64,000 nucleotides of DNA from contig NZ_MTSD02000002.1 of the NCBI RefSeq assembly GCF_001995095.2, positions 496,001 to 560,000 on the forward strand, in the 5' to 3' direction. This document shows, piece by piece, positions 36,288-44,314 of the stretch; positions within the stretch are counted from its first letter, which is position 1; the number at the start of each line of letters is the position of its first letter. Source of the stretch: Oceanospirillum linum (lineage in GTDB: Bacteria > Pseudomonadota > Gammaproteobacteria > Pseudomonadales > Halomonadaceae). Both the position numbers and the translations under genes were made by a program. The notes under the pieces are model-generated. The model made no database searches. It had not been told where the DNA came from and was given only the letters and a program-made list of their open reading frames with translations.

Positions 36288-36599
36288 TTATATCAGATGA
36301 GCACCGGAACTACCCTGCCACGGGCGGATGTTTTTTAACTGATCAGTCAAAGCTTCTTCTGCAATCTCAGTATCATAGGCCACCTGCAAACGCAGCCAGT
36401 AACCGTTAGACAGGCCAAAAAACCGGCACAATCTAAGGTCAGTATCTGCGGTTATCGACCGCTTACCGGCGATAATCTGACCGATCCGCTGAGCAGGCAC
36501 GCCAATCTCCTTCGCCAATCGGTACTGAGAAATACCCATCGGCTCAAGAAACTCTTCTTTTAGCAACTCGCCCGGCGTTACAGGATCGAGATCACGCAT
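36288..36599 (-). CDS. higA: HigA-type antitoxin
   Basis: 103-residue XRE-family antitoxin. MRDLDPVTPGELLKEEFLEPMGISQYRLAKEIGVP is the HigA/VapI signature with helix-turn-helix at residues ~22-45 (YRLAKEIGVPAQRIGQIIAGKRSI). It is 10 bp downstream of the toxin gene higB, the order (toxin first) that marks HigBA. It should bind the HigB toxin and repress the operon through the palindromes at 36908. Confidence 0.93.
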   Translation of the reverse strand: MRDLDPVTPGELLKEEFLEPMGISQYRLAKEIGVPAQRIGQIIAGKRSITADTDLRLCRFFGLSNGYWLRLQVAYDTEIAEEALTDQLKNIRPWQGSSGAHLI

Positions 36600-36609
36600 A
36601 AACGACCTC

Positions 36610-36888
36610 CTAGTGATAATCGACAATTTCAACATCTTCAGCCCCTGCCTTCGTCCAGCGGAAGCATATCCGAAACTGCTTATTAATTCGGATACTGTAC
36701 TGACCGGAACGGTTTCCATACAGCGGCTCCAGCATATTACCGGGGGGCACTTTGAGATCATTCAACTGACCGGCAACTTCAAGCTGGCGGAGCTTTCGCA
36801 AAGCAACACGCTCGAAATTGATAAACCGCCTTACGCGGTGACCACCGGCCAGTTTTTCTGTGTCCTTACATTTGAACGATGCTATCAT
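36610..36888 (-). CDS. higB: HigB-type mRNA interferase toxin
   Basis: 92-residue RelE-superfamily toxin. MIASFKCKDTEKLAGGHRVRRF, RKLRQLEVAGQLNDLKVPPGNMLEPL and RSGQYSIRINKQFRICFRW are standard HigB blocks, including the basic residues used in ribosome-dependent mRNA cutting. The open frame runs further upstream into sequence antisense to the broken brnA copy, so the ATG at 36888 is chosen. Confidence 0.92.
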   Translation of the reverse strand: MIASFKCKDTEKLAGGHRVRRFINFERVALRKLRQLEVAGQLNDLKVPPGNMLEPLYGNRSGQYSIRINKQFRICFRWTKAGAEDVEIVDYH

Positions 36889-36907
36889 GACCTGATAATA
36901 GCGCAGC

Positions 36908-36929
36908 GCGTTAATAACGCCAAGCGTTA
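36908..36929. promoter_or_regulatory. Overlapping palindromes, HigA operator
   Basis: GCGTTAATAACGC (36908-36920) and TAACGCCAAGCGTTA (36915-36929) share TAACGC and give two dyads, 20 bp before higB. Confidence 0.7.
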
Positions 36930-36967
36930 CTATTAATTTGCAGCAGGCGATGTAAAGGTAAACCTCT

Positions 36968-37152
36968 ATGAAAGCGCATGAGTTTGATGCCAAGTTTGAA
37001 AGTGACGACGACATTCTGGGTGATCTGGATCTGACGCAGGCCAAGCGCCCTATGCAGAAGAAAAACGGGTGAATGTTGATTTCCCAGCCTGGATGCTGGA
37101 GTCACTGGATAAAGAAGCCAGTCGGGTCGGTGTTACCCGTCAGTCGATATTA
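36968..37152 (+). pseudogene. Broken copy of brnA antitoxin
   Basis: A near-identical duplicate of the intact brnA at 38864. From the GGTAAACC ribosome-site region on, about 190 bp match with few substitutions. One base is missing in the A-rich stretch after CAGAAG (37052-37060), shifting the frame to a TGA, and the match ends abruptly at CAGTCGAT where ParE-side sequence begins. No brnT is attached. It marks a recombination junction inside the island. Confidence 0.85.
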
Positions 37153-37449
37153 TGTTTGGTTTTCTGGTAATTCTAGCTGCCTCTCACTCCGCCAGACTCG
37201 TATGAGCACGACCTCTTTAGCCTGTCGGAGATAGACAACCCGAAACGGCGCGTGAATCAACTCGCGAAGATGATCCACGTTGAATTCAGGAACAACTCGC
37301 CCAGCATCAGGGTGGACTTGAAGCATTTCACAGTGCTCCAGGATAGCAACCACGAAATCATCACCGATATGTGGCACACCCTGCTCTTTGTAATACGCCT
37401 GAAGAGCCTGTAAGTCCTCAAGAGCGGACTGTGCGATGCGTAATTCCAT
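37150..37449 (-). CDS. RelE/ParE-family toxin
   Basis: 99-residue toxin of the ParE/RelE fold: MELRIAQSALEDLQALQAYYKEQG, HPDAGRVVPEF, LRELIHAPFRVVYL and VWRSERQLEL. It is expected to poison gyrase (ParE) or cut mRNA (RelE); sequence alone does not decide. Its ATG directly follows the antitoxin stop. Its 3' end abuts the broken brnA. Confidence 0.9.
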   Translation of the reverse strand: MELRIAQSALEDLQALQAYYKEQGVPHIGDDFVVAILEHCEMLQVHPDAGRVVPEFNVDHLRELIHAPFRVVYLRQAKEVVLIRVWRSERQLELPENQT

Positions 37450-37719
37450 TTACTTGATACCTAACGTTTTTCTAGCGTCCTCCAACGATACGGTGTTGCC
37501 CTCGCGAACATCCATAAGCCCCTGCGCCACCGCCGTTACAAACCGCAATTCCTCTGCGGTTCTCTCATAATCCTCCAACCCCTGAACAACAGCTATGCCG
37601 CGGCCACGGCTGGTGAGCAAGATGGGACGATGCGTCTCTTGCGCCCGACCAACCACCTTTCCGGGGTTGACCTTCAGGTCTGATAGAGGAATGACATCCT
37701 CGGAAAATTTCACGTGCAT
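37450..37719 (-). CDS. Phd/YefM-family antitoxin
   Basis: 89 residues, with VIPLSDLKVNPGKVVGRAQETHRPILLTSRGRGIAVVQGLEDYE, the DNA-binding Phd fold, and a C-terminal toxin-wrapping tail. Partner of the ParE-like toxin. Upstream is a TGGTGC-N8-GCACCA dyad (37742-37761) that should be its operator. Confidence 0.92.
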   Translation of the reverse strand: MHVKFSEDVIPLSDLKVNPGKVVGRAQETHRPILLTSRGRGIAVVQGLEDYERTAEELRFVTAVAQGLMDVREGNTVSLEDARKTLGIK

Positions 37720-37741
37720 ACTGATTACCTGGTCAACGATT

Positions 37742-37761
37742 TGGTGCCATTATTAGCACCA
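37742..37761. promoter_or_regulatory. Operator of the Phd/ParE operon
   Basis: TGGTGC (37742-37747) and GCACCA (37756-37761) around 8 AT-rich bases, 22 bp upstream of the antitoxin ATG. Confidence 0.6.
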
Positions 37762-37783
37762 GTTAACAGATGCGGTCAAGAAA

Positions 37784-37935
37784 CATAACGCTTGCATCAT
37801 GCGCACCTGCGAAATGAAGCCGGAGGCGCAATCGGGAGGTTTTTCTACAGTCTGAAGGCTCGCGTAATAGGCGCTCGACTAGAGCATCCAGTGGAGGCCC
37901 ATCGAGCCGGAACAAATTTGATGCACTGGTTAGGA
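37784..37935 (-). repeat. attC-like site after the GNAT gene
   Basis: On the minus strand the GNAT stop codon lies inside CCTAAC (37930-37935), the R'' box position typical of integron cassettes. Then CAG-TGCATCA (37919-37928) pairs with TGATGCA-AGC (37790-37799), and GTTATG (37784-37789) takes the R' place. The central ~120 bp is only weakly palindromic. The whole is ~150 bp, at the long end for attC. Confidence 0.5.
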
Positions 37936-38355
37936 AAGCTCCCGCTCCATATAGTGAGTCCCGTCTTCAGTTTTGCAGATCCTGAATCCTTTTCGTTCAT
38001 ATAGAGCCGCTGCTGGGTTTGCACAAAAAACACGAAGCCGAAGCAATTGAAAGCCTTCTTTCCGGGCGACACCAATAGCGAAATTGATTGCCTGCGTCCC
38101 CACTCCCTTATTGTGCCAATCCGGATTGATTTGAAGGTCGCGAATGTAATAGGCGCAACTATCATGACTCAATCGCAAGCATCCAATCGCACACTTATCT
38201 ATAGCTATCTCGTAGTTCTCAAATTCCTTCCAGTTCGCATCGAATAGCGCATGATCCCAGCGAATTCCAAGTTCTTTGTAGTACGGCTCCATGTTCCGAA
38301 GAGTCAGTTGCTCAACAAAACCCTTGTTTTTCGCTTGCCGGAATGTGAGATTCAT
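37930..38355 (-). CDS. GNAT family N-acetyltransferase
   Basis: 141-codon gene of the GCN5-related acetyltransferase fold: DLQINPDWHNKGVGTQAINFAIGVARKEG carries the acetyl-CoA motif (Q/RxxGxG/A as HNKGVG), and NPAAALYERKGF is motif B. Substrate unknown. I start it at the ATG at 38355 (MNLTFRQAKNKGF); the open frame extends 22 codons into the upstream hairpin. Flanking attC-like sites suggest that it is, or was, a gene cassette. Confidence 0.88.
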   Translation of the reverse strand: MNLTFRQAKNKGFVEQLTLRNMEPYYKELGIRWDHALFDANWKEFENYEIAIDKCAIGCLRLSHDSCAYYIRDLQINPDWHNKGVGTQAINFAIGVARKEGFQLLRLRVFCANPAAALYERKGFRICKTEDGTHYMERELS

Positions 38356-38362
38356 TCGAGAC

Positions 38363-38519
38363 TTCCTAACGAGCCTGTAGGAAAACCTGTTTCTAACCTG
38401 CTTTTCCCGCCCACAGCTCACTCTCTGTTGTTAATTGTCAATTGCCGGTTTTTATCGGCCATCGTTTGTTTATTCTATATTTCCGGCCTTTTTAGAAACA
38501 AGCTCGTTTTGGGTTAGCT
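38363..38519 (-). repeat. Second attC-like inverted repeat upstream of the GNAT gene
   Basis: CCTAACGAGC (38365-38374) and GTTTCTAA (38389-38396) pair with TTAGAAAC (38492-38499) and GCTCGT (38502-38507), followed by GTTAGC (38513-38518). GTTAGGA on the minus strand at the GNAT side matches the R' box at the other end of that gene. Arms have unequal spacers (14 and 2 nt), as in attC extrahelical bases, but the loop is large. Confidence 0.45.
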
Positions 38520-38524
38520 AAATT

Positions 38525-38590
38525 ATGAGCGCCCTAGCGGAGATGATCTATAAGCAGATCACGGCAAAACTCTCATTGCTGAATGAGTAA
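38525..38590 (+). pseudogene. 3' fragment of a DUF6435-like gene
   Basis: Encodes LAEMIYKQITAKLSLL, matching the C-terminal EEAEAIYKQITALEAE of the complete gene at 44002 (25 of 29 nt identical in the core GCGGAG...ACGGC). A chance ATG makes a 21-codon frame. It is probably a relic from recombination between the two sites. Confidence 0.5.
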
Positions 38591-38610
38591 AAAGGGTATA
38601 AATTTTACTC

Positions 38611-38877
38611 ATGGTGACATTTGAGTTTGACGAGAAAAAAAGCCAGTCCAATCTCGAAAAACACGGGATTGATTTCCATACCGCGCAGGGTTTATGGAAC
38701 GACTCAGATTTGCTCGAAATTCCAGCCAACACCAGTGACGAGCCAAGGTTTCTAGTGATAGCAATGCTTAACGGCAAACACTGGTCTGGCATTATTACCT
38801 ATCGAGGTGATCACATCCGCATCATCTCGGTCAGGCGTTCCCGCAAAGCGGAGGTAAACCTCTATGAAAGCGCATGA
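38611..38877 (+). CDS. brnT: BrnT family toxin
   Basis: 88-residue RelE-like ribonuclease toxin. FEFDEKKSQSNLEKHGIDFHTAQGLW and RIISVRRSRKAEVNLYE are the diagnostic start and end (RKxE-Y). Its end overlaps the start of the antitoxin brnA by 14 bp, as in the Brucella pair. Confidence 0.95.
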   Translation: MVTFEFDEKKSQSNLEKHGIDFHTAQGLWNDSDLLEIPANTSDEPRFLVIAMLNGKHWSGIITYRGDHIRIISVRRSRKAEVNLYESA

Positions 38878-39106
38878 ATTTGATGCCAAATTTGAAAGTG
38901 ACGACGACATTCTGGGTGACCTGGATCTGTCACAGGCCAAGCGCCCTATGCAGAAGCAAAAACGGGTGAATGTTGATTTCCCGGCTTGGATGCTGGAATC
39001 ACTGGATAAAGAAGCCAGTCGGGTCGGTGTTACCCGTCAGTCGATTATTAAAATCTGGCTGGCTGAACGGCTGGAAGCCGTCGCCCATCATCATAAGTCC
39101 CGGTAG
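38864..39106 (+). CDS. brnA: BrnA family antitoxin
   Basis: 80-residue antitoxin with a C-terminal ribbon-helix-helix (RVNVDFPAWMLESLDKEASRVGVTRQSIIKIWLAERL) that binds DNA, and an N-terminal part that covers BrnT. A frame-broken duplicate lies at 36968. Downstream to 39316 I see no gene; around 39275-39300 the sequence TGTCCGATTTTGTTGACCAG looks like the end of an IS3-type element, without a transposase. Confidence 0.94.
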   Translation: MKAHEFDAKFESDDDILGDLDLSQAKRPMQKQKRVNVDFPAWMLESLDKEASRVGVTRQSIIKIWLAERLEAVAHHHKSR

Positions 39107-39316: not shown

Positions 39317-40375
39317 CTAAGAAGGAATATAATTCACACCTGATTTTGAAAGTTCCAAAGACCATGTGTACGAGCTTGTATCAGGGGAATAATTATGGAT
39401 AACCCAATTCTTATGAATCCCCTCTTGATATCGCCTACCAATATCAATCGCTAACGTGGACTGTACTGACAGAAAAAGATGGATTTTTTTACATCCACTT
39501 TTTCTTGAGAGTTCATCAATGACCTTACAAATCTCATCTGAAACTCTATTAAGATTTCCCTGATTATTAACTAAATTCCTTTCAGAATTTTGATTCGAAG
39601 AGACTATTAAAGTATTTTTACTCAATTCTTCTGGCAACTGATCTTGGCTTATCGGTGAAGTGAAACCTATAGCCAGCCCCACATCCCCAGATTGATTTGG
39701 GTTAATATCCGCTGTTTGATGCGGAGACAAACCAATTTTCATATCCTCATCATCCAACAGTTTCCAAGCCCCATCTCGATGAAATTTATCGAAGTAAATA
39801 ACTGAGCATCTCAAGTTTCGCAGCATATACCCGTATGCGACTAAAAGTGGAATTCTAGCCAAACCACCAAAGTACAGTCTCTTGCAGTCATCATGAACAA
39901 TGAAACGATTTAATATATCCACCAACAGCTCAGAATTATAAAGCTGGATCTGTCGTTTGAAATCCTCATCACTCCCCACTATAGCTTGGCCTAACGTCAC
40001 AGCCTCTCGGCAAAATTCTTTCTCTGCCCGATCTAGAACCCCATCTGGAAATTCTCTCGACATCCCAGGCATTGAAGAAATTAGAACTCTAGAAGTATGC
40101 CTAACATTAGACTTCAAATCCGAATAAATTAAATAGCCTCCAATAACCATCAAGAATATAGAAAACCAAAGTGGTTGCGATGCATCTGAAAGGCTAGCAC
40201 TAATAGACTCAACAGGTGATTCAGAGTTGAATCTTATAGTCACATCAATAGCGGAATATAGTATCGACAATGAAAAAGGCCACAAACAAAGTTTGGCCCC
40301 AATAGAAATTTTAGGGTAAGGGGATTTTTTGAGACGCCACGCCGTAACCCAAAGCCACTTAAACTTCTCCCACAT
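39317..40375 (-). CDS. CBASS effector: two-transmembrane SAVED protein
   Basis: 352 residues. Two hydrophobic helices at ~25-48 and ~69-86 are followed by a cytoplasmic domain that carries SAVED-type features: AYGYMLRNLRCSVIYFDKFHRDGAW, GLAIGFTSPIS and KKIHLFLSVQSTLAIDIGRR. SAVED domains bind cyclic oligonucleotides. 2TM-SAVED effectors (the Cap14 type) have been reported to act as membrane channels that kill infected cells. Its ATG overlaps the preceding stop as TAATG, so translation is coupled to E1-JAB. I infer the SAVED call from context and partial motif; it is the only weakly diagnosed part of the operon. Confidence 0.8.
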   Translation of the reverse strand: MWEKFKWLWVTAWRLKKSPYPKISIGAKLCLWPFSLSILYSAIDVTIRFNSESPVESISASLSDASQPLWFSIFLMVIGGYLIYSDLKSNVRHTSRVLISSMPGMSREFPDGVLDRAEKEFCREAVTLGQAIVGSDEDFKRQIQLYNSELLVDILNRFIVHDDCKRLYFGGLARIPLLVAYGYMLRNLRCSVIYFDKFHRDGAWKLLDDEDMKIGLSPHQTADINPNQSGDVGLAIGFTSPISQDQLPEELSKNTLIVSSNQNSERNLVNNQGNLNRVSDEICKVIDELSRKSGCKKIHLFLSVQSTLAIDIGRRYQEGIHKNWVIHNYSPDTSSYTWSLELSKSGVNYIPS

Positions 40376-41670
40376 TAGCAGTCATCCTCCAAAGCAAATT
40401 CCACCGATTCTCCATCTATGATTCCAAAAATTTTCAACTCATCAGTCCCAATAATAATAAAAAACAACTGCCGGTCTTGATTTTCAGATTCATGAACCAG
40501 CCAATCATTCAAGTCCAGATTAGATGGCGATGGAATGGATTGAGGATGTGTATGCCAAGTCCCTATATATCCCAACAAACCATCAGAACTAGAAAAGTAT
40601 TCATCAACAATTTTCTGGTGAGGAGCAGGATCTAGCTTAAAATATGCCCGACTCTGGATATCCGATTTTTGAGGAGAGGTAATTCGATACAGAGTGTAAG
40701 TGCTGTCCTTTCCATAGCCAATCAACAAGCCTGCCGATTCAACATCACTAGAACCTTCTTGCCGATATGATTTTAGCTCTTCAGCTACTGAAACAGGAAT
40801 TCGAAGCTTAAGGCCATGACCTGCATATGTGATAAATTTTTGATCTGAACAAACGTCACACATTGGGTGACATAGTGATTGAACTTTCAGGTTTTTATCA
40901 AATGAGGAATAACGACGGCTCAGCTTCAAGCCCTGATCTATGACATCATCGTCATCTCCTTTCCAACTCACCTTCGCGGATTCAGTTTGTTTTCCTCTCA
41001 AGTATTTTAGAGCAAGATCCGTAGAAATTAATGCTGTCTGACTTGAGCTAAGGTGCCCATACGGAATAAACATCTCTCCACAACCAGCAAAATTTTTAAC
41101 TACCTCTTGGTCAGGTTCCAGAAAATTCAGGTTTGATGCCAGTCCCCTACGGCCATTCTCTGGATCAACATAAGCACACTTCAGACACCCCTCACTTTTC
41201 GGGACATCAAGCACCGCATGACCACCAATACCATAGCCTTCAAGCCAGGTATAAATAACAGGGGTGTTAATGCTATTTTGAGCGACGAAGTCTTGGAAAA
41301 TTCGTTCTTGTGTAGGAGAACCGATTGCCACGATAACGAGATCAAACTCTCTCAAGATATCTTGATATCTAAGGTTCAGAAGAGAATATATGATGCCGTT
41401 CGCCTCAAGCCATGGGTATTTAGACATTAGCTGATAAGAAACAGCTAAGGACTTAGGCTCAAACAGCCACCGAGAATCCAGTAAATGTCTGTATATATTA
41501 GATGGGGAATATTCATCAGGGTCGACTATAGATAACGAACCAACCCCAGCAGCACCTAACTTATCTGCAATCTCACTACCAACAGATCCACAACCTATAA
41601 GTAAGACTTTCTTACCTGAAAGAGCATCCTCTGCTCCACCTCGAAATAAAAGTTCTTCCTTATTCATCAT
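40375..41670 (-). CDS. CBASS E1-JAB fusion (Cap2 C-terminal part plus Cap3)
   Basis: 431 residues. An E1/ThiF adenylation domain has the nucleotide loop GCGSVG (26-31), D50 and the N58...R61H motif, paired Cys G162-C-LK-C165 and C271-DV-C274 as a zinc site, and a candidate catalytic Cys in AGCGEM (C198). From ~300 a JAB/JAMM isopeptidase domain follows with E311, H373-T-H375, S383 and D386, the full zinc set. In type II CBASS, Cap2 joins the CD-NTase C terminus to target proteins and Cap3 removes it. Here E1 and JAB are one chain. The frame stays open ~45 codons upstream of this ATG (to 41804), giving a coherent sequence (GVFGVDTLSGVSYFG...WRVEPVSL) that continues the E2 gene after a one-base shift; no ribosome site fits the ATG. 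Confidence 0.9.
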   Translation of the reverse strand: MMNKEELLFRGGAEDALSGKKVLLIGCGSVGSEIADKLGAAGVGSLSIVDPDEYSPSNIYRHLLDSRWLFEPKSLAVSYQLMSKYPWLEANGIIYSLLNLRYQDILREFDLVIVAIGSPTQERIFQDFVAQNSINTPVIYTWLEGYGIGGHAVLDVPKSEGCLKCAYVDPENGRRGLASNLNFLEPDQEVVKNFAGCGEMFIPYGHLSSSQTALISTDLALKYLRGKQTESAKVSWKGDDDDVIDQGLKLSRRYSSFDKNLKVQSLCHPMCDVCSDQKFITYAGHGLKLRIPVSVAEELKSYRQEGSSDVESAGLLIGYGKDSTYTLYRITSPQKSDIQSRAYFKLDPAPHQKIVDEYFSSSDGLLGYIGTWHTHPQSIPSPSNLDLNDWLVHESENQDRQLFFIIIGTDELKIFGIIDGESVEFALEDDC

Positions 41671-41719
41671 TATTAGTGAAACTGGTTCAACTCTCCAGTT
41701 CGCCAGTTTCTCAAAACTA

Positions 41720-42595
41720 TCAGGAAATGACTTTTTGGATTTGCAAAAAAATCGAACTCCAAAATATGAAACACCTGAAAGAGTATCGACACCAAATACC
41801 CCCCCAGAACTCTTTTACACGCCGGGACTTTAGAGATTTTTCGATCCCTGATCGAACATCGCTACTAAGCAGTTCAAGAAATTGTAATACCCACCTCTTT
41901 AATTCCGCCTCATCGGATGGAAAATCTAATCCGACCTGCCCAACTGAGGCATAAAATGCAGAAATATACTCCGAAGCATTGGAACGAATCGACAACGACA
42001 AATAATTTGAAATACTCGATTTCAAATATTGCTCCGACACCGCCACATAGGACTGACCCAGGGGGTTAACATGAGAACCCGATATCGGTCTGAAGATTTC
42101 CAAAATCTGGAAGTCTTTCAACTCACGAACACATATCAAAGATTCGACTTTTTTGGACTGTTCCTTTAGCCAAGTACATTGCCAATTAGCTGTAAACTCC
42201 CTCAAAAGTTCACTTTTGTTGAATTCAGGATCTATCATAAGTCGTGTCAAAAGATCCTTATGCCGCCGAATTGACTCTTCAAAAGCTAATTCAGGGCATT
42301 CATAATTAACAGAAACGGAATCCAAGTTATTGACACATATCGACCCCAAGCCTTTCATAGCAGGGTCGCTAGAAAGTAACACATGGGCTAGCTGCCCATA
42401 TTTTTCATTATTATCCAAATAAAAATGTGGCAGAGATGTAATCTCTGCCACATAGCGATGCAAAAGACTGACTACCGTCCCTTCAACGTCGAAGGACACG
42501 CGAAGGTAATCCTCTCCCATAAACTCCCACGGCTCAACATCAAATTCTGAGTCCAGAAAGTACTCGTATATCTTGGAGTAATCGAGCTTATGCAC
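41720..42595 (-). CDS. CBASS E2-like domain (Cap2 N-terminal part), frame ends early
   Basis: 291 residues from a GTG at 42595 (AGGGA 9 nt upstream), overlapping the CD-NTase stop by 8 bp; a GTG 54 nt earlier is possible. It resembles prokaryotic E2 domains of Cap2: RVSFDVEGTVVSLLHRYVAEITSLPHFYL, HVLLSSDPAMKGLGSICVNN with the likely catalytic Cys (residue 87), and W- and D-rich helices after. The last ~25 residues (IWCRYSFRCFIFW...) are Cys/Phe-rich and unlike the rest, because a G7 tract at 41799-41805 shifts the frame. Removing one G links WG to VFGVDTLSG and on into E1-JAB. Confidence 0.75.
   Translation of the reverse strand: MHKLDYSKIYEYFLDSEFDVEPWEFMGEDYLRVSFDVEGTVVSLLHRYVAEITSLPHFYLDNNEKYGQLAHVLLSSDPAMKGLGSICVNNLDSVSVNYECPELAFEESIRRHKDLLTRLMIDPEFNKSELLREFTANWQCTWLKEQSKKVESLICVRELKDFQILEIFRPISGSHVNPLGQSYVAVSEQYLKSSISNYLSLSIRSNASEYISAFYASVGQVGLDFPSDEAELKRWVLQFLELLSSDVRSGIEKSLKSRRVKEFWGGIWCRYSFRCFIFWSSIFLQIQKVIS
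41799..41805 (-). other. G7 homopolymer frameshift in the E2-E1-JAB gene
   Basis: Minus strand ...TTCTGGGGGGGTA.... With six G the E2 and E1-JAB frames join into one ~770-residue protein; with seven they are separate. This could be a sequencing error, a true mutation, a phase-variable tract or a +1 shift site. Confidence 0.8.
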
Positions 42596-43676
42596 CTTGA
42601 GAAGTCCCTGAAGCACCAGCTGTCGGGAAGTATGATGCGGCTGTTGCACCTACTACTGATTCACATCCTTTAGAGCCAGAAGAATTGGGAATTTTGAAGT
42701 CATCACCAAAGACTTTATTCAAAATTCCGCATTGCTTGATCTCATCTGTTTCGCTACTGGCTTCCTCCAGCTTACTCAGCAGACTTGTCAGCTTGTTTCT
42801 AAACAATGTACCAATGTTGGTATCACTGCCTGGCTCTGACAGAGTTCCAACTTTATGTTGAAAAACATCTCGATGTGGAGATTTAGGCAAATTTACGGAT
42901 AGCCGATATAGGGCTTGGTCGTATGAATACAATTGTCGAATATATCCGGCATTCAGCATATTTCTGACAACCTGTTCAAGCGCAGTTAAATCATCCTTCA
43001 CATCTGAACAGTAACCGGGCTGGTACTGCTCTTTAATCATGATAGTCAGACCGATAGAGAAAAGCTTTTTCCGCGACTGTTCATTGAAATTGACGTCCCT
43101 CCAGCGTTTCATATAGCGAACCAGTCGCTTGAACTGCTTTCTCTTACTCACAGAGCTTTCACCATAACCAGAGGCTTCGTTGATCCAATCAATCAGGCCT
43201 TTAGGGTCTGAAGGTGACCACTCCTTATTTTCAGCTAACGAGCCAAGCTTACCCACTGCTAGCTTATAGTTCCCACTGGAGTCACGAGTGTAAATTGTGT
43301 AGTCAATGTGCAGATTGATGCTTAAGTAGTCCGCGGTTACACATGGCTTTTTGACTTTTGGATTTTTAAAACTTCTCTTCTTCAGAACGTCGAGCGCAAC
43401 ATCTTTCGGTTTGACCGGATCTTCAGGCGCAGAGTCTGCATCAATGACTAGTGCCCTATCAATGTCATAGTCGCCCTCGAGGCTATTGATTGCAGTGTTA
43501 ACTGAAAAAGACCCCTGTAAGAAGGTCTCAACTACTGGATACCCCTCCTCAATAAAGCGATTTTTTAAGTCATTAAGAATACTATCGTCTTTCTCTTTAG
43601 CTTTTTTATAACCTGGCGACTGACCTGTTAAGTAAATCGCTTTATCAAAATTATTGAAGTGGGTCTGGATTGGCAT
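42588..43676 (-). CDS. CBASS cyclic-oligonucleotide synthase (CD-NTase)
   Basis: 362-residue cGAS/DncV-like nucleotidyltransferase. Motif GS at residues 55-56 (LQGSFSVNTA), catalytic Asp 71 and 73 in GDYDIDRAL, and a third Asp at ~125 (HIDYTIY). The C terminus is a flexible Gly/Ser/Thr/Ala-rich tail ending in GTSQGA; in type II CBASS the C-terminal Gly or Ala region is the site of conjugation by Cap2. CGGAG stands 9 nt before the ATG. It is the first gene of the operon. Clade and product (cGAMP, other di- or trinucleotide) cannot be named by eye. Confidence 0.92.
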   Translation of the reverse strand: MPIQTHFNNFDKAIYLTGQSPGYKKAKEKDDSILNDLKNRFIEEGYPVVETFLQGSFSVNTAINSLEGDYDIDRALVIDADSAPEDPVKPKDVALDVLKKRSFKNPKVKKPCVTADYLSINLHIDYTIYTRDSSGNYKLAVGKLGSLAENKEWSPSDPKGLIDWINEASGYGESSVSKRKQFKRLVRYMKRWRDVNFNEQSRKKLFSIGLTIMIKEQYQPGYCSDVKDDLTALEQVVRNMLNAGYIRQLYSYDQALYRLSVNLPKSPHRDVFQHKVGTLSEPGSDTNIGTLFRNKLTSLLSKLEEASSETDEIKQCGILNKVFGDDFKIPNSSGSKGCESVVGATAASYFPTAGASGTSQGA

Positions 43677-43876
43677 GCTGTAGACTCCGAAGGCAAGATA
43701 TCCTTATAGATTGTGATGGAACCATCCAATTCAAGAGCTAAATTAAAACTTTCTTACAAGTTCCAGTAATCTGCTGATACCTATCTGGTACGAATAGACA
43801 GATAAAGCGCAAGTTGTGGGCCGCTTTAGTAGAGTATGCTTTCAGCACGTTGAAAATGCTTGCAGGTTAGACCGAT

Positions 43877-43907
43877 ATGCATTCCCACGTAGAACGTGAG
43901 GAACGAG
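43877..43907. repeat. REP-like palindromic repeat, copy 1
   Basis: Starts ATGCATTCCCACG and contains the hairpin CCACGT-agaa-CGTGAGG, then AACGAG. Of the three copies, the most conserved. The remaining gap 43677-44001 shows no gene. Confidence 0.7.
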
Positions 43908-44001
43908 TTGTGTTCTGAGTATTCCTCTCCTCCCCCAACATCGACTTATCGGTTTTCCTCGTACAAGCCTGACATTCTTTTTAACTGTAGGCGGTACATC
44001 T

Positions 44002-44181
44002 ATGTTTTCTCTCTTTAAGTCTGACCCGAGCAAGAAACTGAAAAAGGAATACGCGGCTAAGCTGGAGCAGGCGATGCTGGCTCAGCGTAATGGCGATATT
44101 AAAAGCTATTCGTTTCTGACGGAGGAGGCGGAGGCGATCTACAAGCAGATTACGGCGCTGGAGGCGGAGCAATCCAAGTAA
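44002..44181 (+). CDS. DUF6435 family small protein
   Basis: 59-residue charged helical protein (MFSLFKSDPSKKLKKEYAAKLEQAMLAQRNGDIKSYSFLTEEAEAIYKQITALEAEQSK). DUF6435 proteins of this size and start are common in marine gammaproteobacteria; function unknown. It sits between two REP-like repeats and next to CBASS. A 3' fragment of a related copy is at 38525. Confidence 0.8.
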   Translation: MFSLFKSDPSKKLKKEYAAKLEQAMLAQRNGDIKSYSFLTEEAEAIYKQITALEAEQSK

Positions 44182-44188
44182 GACGGGG

Positions 44189-44219
44189 ATGCATTACCAC
44201 GTAGAACATGATGAATGAG
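44189..44219. repeat. REP-like palindromic repeat, copy 2
   Basis: ATGCATTACCACGTAGAAC then ATGATGAATGAG; same 31-bp unit as 43877 with several changes. Confidence 0.7.
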
Positions 44220-44262
44220 TCATTCCAGTGCTGGATGCCGCGCAATACAGTGTAAGACCCGT

Positions 44263-44292
44263 ATGCATTACCACGCGGAGCGGGAGTACGAG
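44263..44292. repeat. REP-like palindromic repeat, copy 3
   Basis: ATGCATTACCACGCGGAG then CGGGAGTACGAG; the loop base pairs CCACGC-ggag-cggg are kept only in part. Confidence 0.65.
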
Positions 44293-44314
44293 TCGAAGGC
44301 CGACCCACAAAAAA

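What the first reader, a model, noticed from the sequence alone, without database searches (positions are those of the whole stretch)
40375..42595. E2, E1 and JAB of the CBASS operon are one gene split by a single-base shift at a G7 tract
The E2 frame ends with ~25 residues of Cys/Phe-rich nonsense after the G7 run at 41799-41805. The E1-JAB frame stays open upstream of its ATG to the same tract and reads as a natural protein. Removing one G joins them as WGVFGVDTLSG... into a ~770-residue E2-E1-JAB chain. This would be a Cap2-Cap3 triple fusion. The tract could switch a conjugation system on (G6) and off (G7), which would be a striking way to tune a type II CBASS. It may also simply be a sequencing error or a new mutation.
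Basis: partly seen in the sequence, partly recalled or inferred. Interest (0 to 1): 0.85.

Follow-up and report, generated by a model that had tools for sequence, protein, structure and literature searches.

The report
Defence gene split at G run
An anti-phage gene that relatives carry in one piece is cut in two at a run of seven Gs, and other long G runs in the same genome, including those in two DNA-repair genes, show the same break, which points to a mutator strain or assembly errors rather than a defence switch.

Summary
On the minus strand the E2 frame leaves its family at a G7 run (41799-41805), and the E1-JAB frame is open back to that run. The two pieces fit end to end on one known 736-position model. 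Seven relatives carry one uninterrupted E2-E1-JAB gene; the triple module was described in 2006.

The switch idea is not supported. The run is private: the three closest relatives have G4 there. The window branch shows no relaxed selection, so the break is recent or artefactual. It is not specific to CBASS: of 48 G/C7 runs with coding signal on both sides, 12 change frame, 11 in the direction seen here, against 1 of 42 A/T7 runs in the same genome and 0 of 27 G/C7 runs in one congener. mutL (G7) and mutS (G8) are split as well, and intact in 8 of 8 and 13 of 13 relatives searched.

Most likely CBASS was a bystander in a lineage that lost mismatch repair; G-run assembly error is the main rival, and only reads can separate them.

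The parts
42588..43676 (-). CD-NTase gene (362 aa), intact, ending in Ala
   Evidence: Pfam DncV-like NTase and SMODS, PADLOC PDLC00795 E 2.8e-110; GS...DxD motif; C-terminal 14 residues identical in four operons
41720..42595 (-). E2 piece of the triple-fusion gene, likely start GTG at 42595, ending in 27 residues that match nothing
   Evidence: PDLC00838 positions 1-259; E2 Cys motif ICVN. The start is inferred from the profile start and the relatives' frames.
41799..41805 (-). G7 run at which the reading frame changes
41671..41798 (-). Stretch upstream of the E1-JAB ATG, open in the E1 frame and homologous to the joining region of intact fusions
40375..41670 (-). E1-JAB piece (431 aa); no Shine-Dalgarno-like sequence close to its ATG
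   Evidence: Pfam ThiF and Prok-JAB, PDLC00838 positions 303-730; GxGxxG, two CxxC, JAMM motif, upstream sequence
39317..40375 (-). 2TM-SAVED effector gene (352 aa), intact
   Evidence: Pfam SAVED E 2e-27, PADLOC PDLC00670 '2TM' E 2.2e-193

Best explanation
The locus is a type II CBASS operon: CD-NTase, an E2-E1-JAB triple fusion (Cap2 and Cap3 in one chain) and a 2TM-SAVED effector. In this genome the fusion gene is interrupted by a frame offset at a G7 run (shown). The offset is recent or artefactual (supported by the selection test). It is one of many frame changes at long G/C runs in this genome, including in mutL and mutS (shown, as assembled). The most likely cause is replication slippage in a lineage that has lost mismatch repair (inferred). 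With the gene split, conjugation and deconjugation of the CD-NTase should be lost while CD-NTase and effector genes remain intact (inferred from published Cap2/Cap3 biology).
For: One gene: the pieces are consecutive on PDLC00838 and the frame is uninterrupted in L008, L011, L012, L013, L014, L015 and L017. Recent: N/S on the window branch against the Marinomonas branch is 0.83/0.88 (E2), 0.43/3.0 (junction), 0.27/0.55 (E1), 1.19/1.13 (JAB). Genome-wide: 12 of 48 G/C7 runs with coding signal on both sides change frame, 11 of 12 in one direction; for 7 of the 12 the same Pfam family continues across the run. Same genome: G/C4 16 of 761, G/C5 4 of 184, G/C6 4 of 49, A/T7 1 of 42; runs of 8 or more 3 of 7. 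Congener G003 at G/C7: 0 of 27. Fisher p 0.003 against G003, 0.002 against A/T7. mutL split at G7, intact in 8 of 8 relatives searched; mutS split at G8, intact in 13 of 13. Mismatch-repair-deficient P. aeruginosa lines: 104 of 108 indels in G:C runs, insertions 3.32 times deletions (PMC4702332, passages). Seven mutS/mutL lineages: 86% of microindels in homopolymers (PMC3764201, passages).
Against: No reads, so a G-run-specific assembly error would look the same. The method has a floor: controls gave 2 of 10 at G/C7 in a G004/G005 sample (both in the other direction), 1 of 24 at G6 in G001 and 2 of 26 at A/T7 in G003 plus G001; against all G/C7 controls pooled p is 0.017. For 5 of the 12 changes Pfam did not confirm continuity. 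The CBASS run itself scores 'not both coding' and is known by homology only. G7 and G8 counts against congeners show no clear excess of long runs. In Vibrio mutS mutants there is no insertion bias of this kind (PMC5854121, passages). The transition excess expected of such mutators was not testable.
Confidence: 0.52

Rival explanations
1. Assembly or sequencing artefact: run lengths at long G/C homopolymers are miscalled in this draft, so the CBASS gene, mutL, mutS and the others are intact in the organism.
For: A quarter of the testable G/C7 runs change frame in one draft of 285 contigs, including in cydB, mutL and mutS, which are single open frames in the relatives searched for mutL and mutS. 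No sign of relaxed selection on the split gene.
Against: A/T runs of the same length are hardly affected (1 of 42 at A/T7), whereas homopolymer miscalls usually strike both kinds (recalled). The bias towards G:C runs and insertions is the published one of mismatch-repair-deficient P. aeruginosa. murG, dnaB, infB and pyrG (named by eye) have in-frame G7 runs, but four genes prove little.
Confidence: 0.38
2. An ordinary, isolated loss-of-function mutation in CBASS in a repair-proficient strain.
For: The break is recent and private.
Against: It does not explain the frame changes at other long G/C runs of the same genome.
Confidence: 0.05
3. A CBASS-specific phase-variable tract that switches the conjugation arm on and off.
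For: A G7 run in a coding frame is a possible slippage site; the rest of the operon is intact.
Against: The run is not retained in relatives; other G/C7 runs of this genome behave alike; no report of it in the listings of my paper searches.
Confidence: 0.04
4. Programmed frameshifting or transcriptional slippage at the G run that makes both E2 alone and the full fusion.
For: The two frames meet at a homopolymer.
Against: The seven intact relatives encode the fusion in one frame without such a run; the tail after the run matches no family model.
Confidence: 0.01

Closest known systems
E2-E1-JAB 'triple module' proteins, row 6a of Iyer et al. 2006 (PMC1779556, passages read)
   Same: The same three domains in the same order in one polypeptide, in the intact relatives
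   Different: Row 6a genes mostly neighbour a metallo-beta-lactamase gene; here the neighbours are CD-NTase and SAVED genes, and the window copy is split
PADLOC PDLC00838, a 736-position CBASS 'E1-E2' model
   Same: End-to-end match for seven relatives (e.g. 1318 bits, positions 1-735, for M. shanghaiensis) and for the two window pieces taken together
   Different: Labelled E1-E2 although its last part corresponds to JAB here; the window copy lies in two frames
Type II CBASS Cap2 and Cap3 as separate proteins (solved: E. cloacae Cap2 7to3, Cap3 9ild)
   Same: Best Foldseek matches of the predicted L011 fusion; CD-NTase ends in Ala, as is usual with full Cap2 and Cap3 (PMC10097602, passages)
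   Different: Fused in this subfamily; in L009 and L010 JAB is annotated as a separate gene
Mismatch-repair-deficient hypermutators of P. aeruginosa (PMC4702332 and PMC3764201, passages read)
   Same: Indels concentrated in homopolymers, above all G:C, mostly insertions in the laboratory lines, rate rising with run length
   Different: Inferred here from a single assembly without reads, parent strain or substitution spectrum
Homopolymers in human mismatch-repair genes MSH6 and MSH3 as mutability switches in tumours (PMC11250277, only the start of the abstract in listings)
   Same: Repair genes that themselves carry coding homopolymers which are mutated
   Different: Human cancer; here bacterial mutS and mutL, and switching not shown

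Membership tests
Type II CBASS | CD-NTase with catalytic GS...DxD motif | tested here: met
Type II CBASS | CD-NTase C-terminal residue Gly or Ala, used for conjugation | tested here: met
   Ends in Ala; last 14 residues identical in the window, L011, L012 and L013; criterion from PMC10097602 passages
Type II CBASS | Cap2: E2 and E1 domains in one protein | tested here: not met
   Met in the seven relatives; in the window as assembled the domains lie in different frames. The operon is of this kind; this gene, as assembled, is broken.
Type II CBASS | Cap3: JAMM motif | tested here: met
   ESAGLL and HTHPQSIPSPSNLD
Type II CBASS | Effector gene in the operon | tested here: met
   2TM-SAVED
Type II CBASS | Anti-phage activity | not testable with these tools
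   needs an assay
E2-E1-JAB triple module (Iyer row 6a) | Three domains in one polypeptide in that order | tested here: not met
   Met in seven relatives; interrupted in the window as assembled
E2-E1-JAB triple module (Iyer row 6a) | Neighbouring metallo-beta-lactamase gene | tested here: not met
   Neighbours are CD-NTase and SAVED
Phase-variable contingency locus | Repeat tract retained among relatives | tested here: not met
   Run absent at the homologous site in the loci read
Phase-variable contingency locus | Tract length varies among strains or within a culture | not testable with these tools
   One genome per species is held; no reads
Mismatch-repair hypermutator | mutS or mutL inactive | tested here: inconclusive
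   Both split at G runs as assembled; reads needed
Mismatch-repair hypermutator | Indels concentrated in homopolymers, G:C above all | tested here: met
   12 of 48 G/C7 against 1 of 42 A/T7 and 16 of 761 G/C4, as assembled
Mismatch-repair hypermutator | Excess of transitions | not tested
   No close strain to compare with

The most novel reading that the evidence does not exclude
In this species both mutS (G8) and mutL (G7) carry long coding G runs that can switch mismatch repair off and on. While it is off, every long coding G run in the genome becomes a reversible switch, the E2-E1-JAB gene of CBASS among them. Phage defence would then be tuned through a genome-wide mutability switch and not through a tract of its own.
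Probability: 0.12. Interest if true: 0.65.

Novelty: new member of a known kind. Interest (0 to 1): 0.33.

Why it matters
It corrects a tempting story: an apparent CBASS on/off switch is one case of a genome-wide G-run effect. If the run lengths are real, this genome is a lineage with both core mismatch-repair genes broken at coding G runs and a phage-defence conjugation enzyme among the casualties, which would make the link between mutability and defence testable. If they are not real, its annotation holds many false pseudogenes. Either way, the intact Cap2-Cap3 triple fusion of the relatives is a handy system for studying conjugation and deconjugation by one chain.

Tried and rejected
A CBASS-specific switch was rejected because the run is not retained and other G/C7 runs behave alike. 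Programmed frameshifting was rejected because the intact relatives use one frame. Searches with E1-JAB found no relative in viral contigs or phages (E up to 1e-20); a megablast of the operon found nothing in E. coli genomes. Plasmids gave 70 records; among the 30 listed, one (H1) has E1 and JAB in one gene. Families PDLC00838 in 97 kin genomes: only the own genome; in 398 of the phylum: own plus two others. Run counts do not show a clear excess of long runs: G7/G6 is 84/380 here and 51/264, 53/258, 52/230 in G003, G004, G005; G8 is 20 here and 9 to 24 in five congeners. A strand test was uninformative: 11 of 13 changed runs and 56 of 71 others lie on the locally G-rich strand. In-frame G7 runs in essential genes were too few to separate error from mutation. 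A terminator-like 13-bp hairpin inside E2 is perfect in the window and L011 but weaker in L012 and L013, so it was dropped. A first ORF-based classification of runs counted antisense ORFs as intact and was replaced by codon scoring. Paper searches for CBASS with phase variation, with homopolymer and frameshift, and for Cap2, Cap3, fusion and JAB listed nothing that I recognised from title and abstract start as a phase-variable or G-run-split CBASS; of these hits I read only passages of PMC10097602, and only this library was searched.
Full report
What is there. The minus strand of 39317-43676 holds a CBASS operon: CD-NTase (42588-43676), an E2 piece (42595 to 41720), an E1-JAB piece (41670 to 40375) and a 2TM-SAVED effector (40375 to 39317), identified by Pfam and PADLOC. 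A C7 on the plus strand lies at 41799-41805, the only G/C run of 7 or more in the window. Up to this run the E2 frame matches its family; the residues after it match nothing. The E1-JAB frame is open from just upstream of the run. The pieces match positions 1-259 and 258-731 of one 736-position model.

One gene in relatives. A genome scan returned 15 loci and plasmids gave 70 records, of which I fetched three. Uninterrupted E2-E1-JAB frames were found in L008 (Vibrio plasmid), L011 and L012 (Marinomonas; E1-JAB 83% identical), L013 (Oceanospirillaceae MAG), L014 (Vibrio qingdaonensis), L015 (Parendozoicomonas) and L017 (Enterovibrio MAG): open frames of 750-781 codons, all matching the model nearly end to end. 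L016 is split at a stretch of N with a TAA, and L018 is cut near a contig end, so neither tells. In L009, L010, L019-L024 the frame ends after E1; a separate JAB gene is annotated in L009 and L010. L025 matches only the JAB part. The architecture is not new: Iyer et al. 2006 describe a triple module with E2, E1 and JAB in that order (PMC1779556, passages), and PADLOC has a model of that length.

The run is private and the break is recent. At the homologous site L011, L012 and L013 have G4, and the Vibrio-like copies have other codons. A parsimony count with L013 as outgroup shows no rise of non-synonymous change on the window branch: E2 29N/35S, joining stretch 3N/7S, E1 7N/26S, JAB 19N/16S, against 29/33, 6/2, 16/29 and 17/15 on the Marinomonas branch; CD-NTase 20/45 against 22/49, SAVED 20/38 against 18/30. 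The joining stretch has few changes. The window operon aligns with L011 over 4.4 kb and not beyond. Its E1-JAB is more similar (83%) than MutL is between the same genomes (60-62%), which suggests horizontal spread (inference).

Where the cut falls. In an AlphaFold model of the intact M. shanghaiensis protein (mean pLDDT 73, pTM 0.55, so only local features are used) the site lies in strand 260-271 (block pLDDT 93) and the E1-JAB ATG corresponds to the end of strand 301-309. Cap2 (7to3, 7tqd) and Cap3 (9ild) are the best solved relatives by Foldseek. Both pieces should therefore lack part of a folded core (inference).

Not specific to CBASS. The genome has 84 exact G7 runs. I scored 35 codons on each side of each run by codon usage. 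48 of 84 have coding signal on both sides, and 12 of the 48 change frame at the run, 11 of them in the direction seen at the window's run. The CBASS run is one of the 36 left out, because its codon usage is foreign. For 7 of the 12 the same Pfam family continues across the run (DAO, CydB, AraC arabinose-binding, NMT1, enoyl-CoA hydratase, FMN oxidoreductase, MutL C-terminal domain); for 5 it was not confirmed. Of 8 distinct runs of 8 or more in the loci then fetched, 7 have coding signal on both sides and 3 of these change frame, 2 of them in the usual direction. Other classes in the same genome: G/C4 16 of 761, G/C5 4 of 184, G/C6 4 of 49, A/T5 17 of 524, A/T6 5 of 148, A/T7 1 of 42, A/T8 1 of 8. 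Controls: G/C7 0 of 27 in G003, 2 of 10 in a G004/G005 sample, both in the other direction, 0 of 2 in G001; G/C6 0 of 10 in G003 and 1 of 24 in G001; A/T7 2 of 26 in G003 plus G001. Fisher p is 0.003 against G003, 0.017 against the pooled G/C7 controls, 0.002 against own A/T7. With a stricter score threshold the figures are 9 of 37 at G/C7 and 0 of 25 at A/T7 (p 0.008).

Mismatch repair. mutL is open for 521 residues and its C-terminal domain continues in another frame at a G7 run; homologs are single open frames of 627-682 codons in 5 of 5 congeners and 644-657 in 3 other genomes. mutS is split between model positions 1-267 and 267-839 at a G8 run and is a single open frame of 860-926 codons in 13 of 13 relatives. 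Mismatch-repair-deficient P. aeruginosa lines have 96.3% of 108 indels in G:C runs and insertions 3.32 times deletions (PMC4702332, passages). Seven mutS/mutL lineages carry 79-268 microindels each, 86% in homopolymers (PMC3764201, passages). In Vibrio mutS mutants one species keeps a deletion bias and the other shows no significant bias (PMC5854121, passages). The pattern here fits the Pseudomonas case, but a G-specific assembly error cannot be excluded.

Likely working state. By published Cap2 and Cap3 biology (PMC10097602, passages) an intact fusion should conjugate the CD-NTase through its C-terminal residue and release it again. With the gene split as assembled this arm should be dead, while CD-NTase and effector genes are intact and might still act against some phages (inference).

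Verdict. The one-gene reading is close to certain; the switch reading is unlikely; between a mutator lineage and an artefact I lean to the former at 0.52 against 0.38.

Noticed in passing
L099 (mutL, G000:C252 from 24092) and L302/L303 (mutS, G000:C220:59340-61897): Both core mismatch-repair genes are split at coding G runs (7 and 8) in this assembly and are single open frames in the relatives searched (8 of 8 and 13 of 13).
   Followed up: partly
L041, L047, L081, L086, L096, L098, L119, L130: Further genes interrupted at G/C runs of 7-9: FAD oxidoreductase, cydB, AraC-type regulator, NMT1-GGDEF, enoyl-CoA hydratase, FMN oxidoreductase, EAL protein, sigma-54 activator (in L130 the adjoining domain follows in another frame).
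   Followed up: partly
window 36956-37148 and 38852-39045: Two direct repeats (95-97% identical) 1.9 kb apart that cover the end of a BrnT-like toxin gene and the start of its CopG-like antitoxin gene; an intact BrnT ORF was seen only at the second copy, so the first looks like a remnant.
   Followed up: no
window 36288-39106: Cluster of type II toxin-antitoxin genes (HigB-like with HTH protein, ParE with Phd/YefM, BrnT with CopG-like) and a GNAT gene directly beside the CBASS operon.
   Followed up: no
window 43863-44294: Three copies of a 46-nt repeat (the others 80% and 61% identical to the first) between the CBASS operon and an aldehyde dehydrogenase gene.
   Followed up: no
window 42425-42453: Perfect 13-bp hairpin with a T-rich tail inside the E2 coding sequence, also perfect in L011 but weaker in L012 and L013; terminator-like, possibly chance.
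   Followed up: partly
L007 (G260:C29:43594-45153): A remote PDLC00838 relative with internal stops (1 TGA, 1 TAA) as assembled.
   Followed up: no
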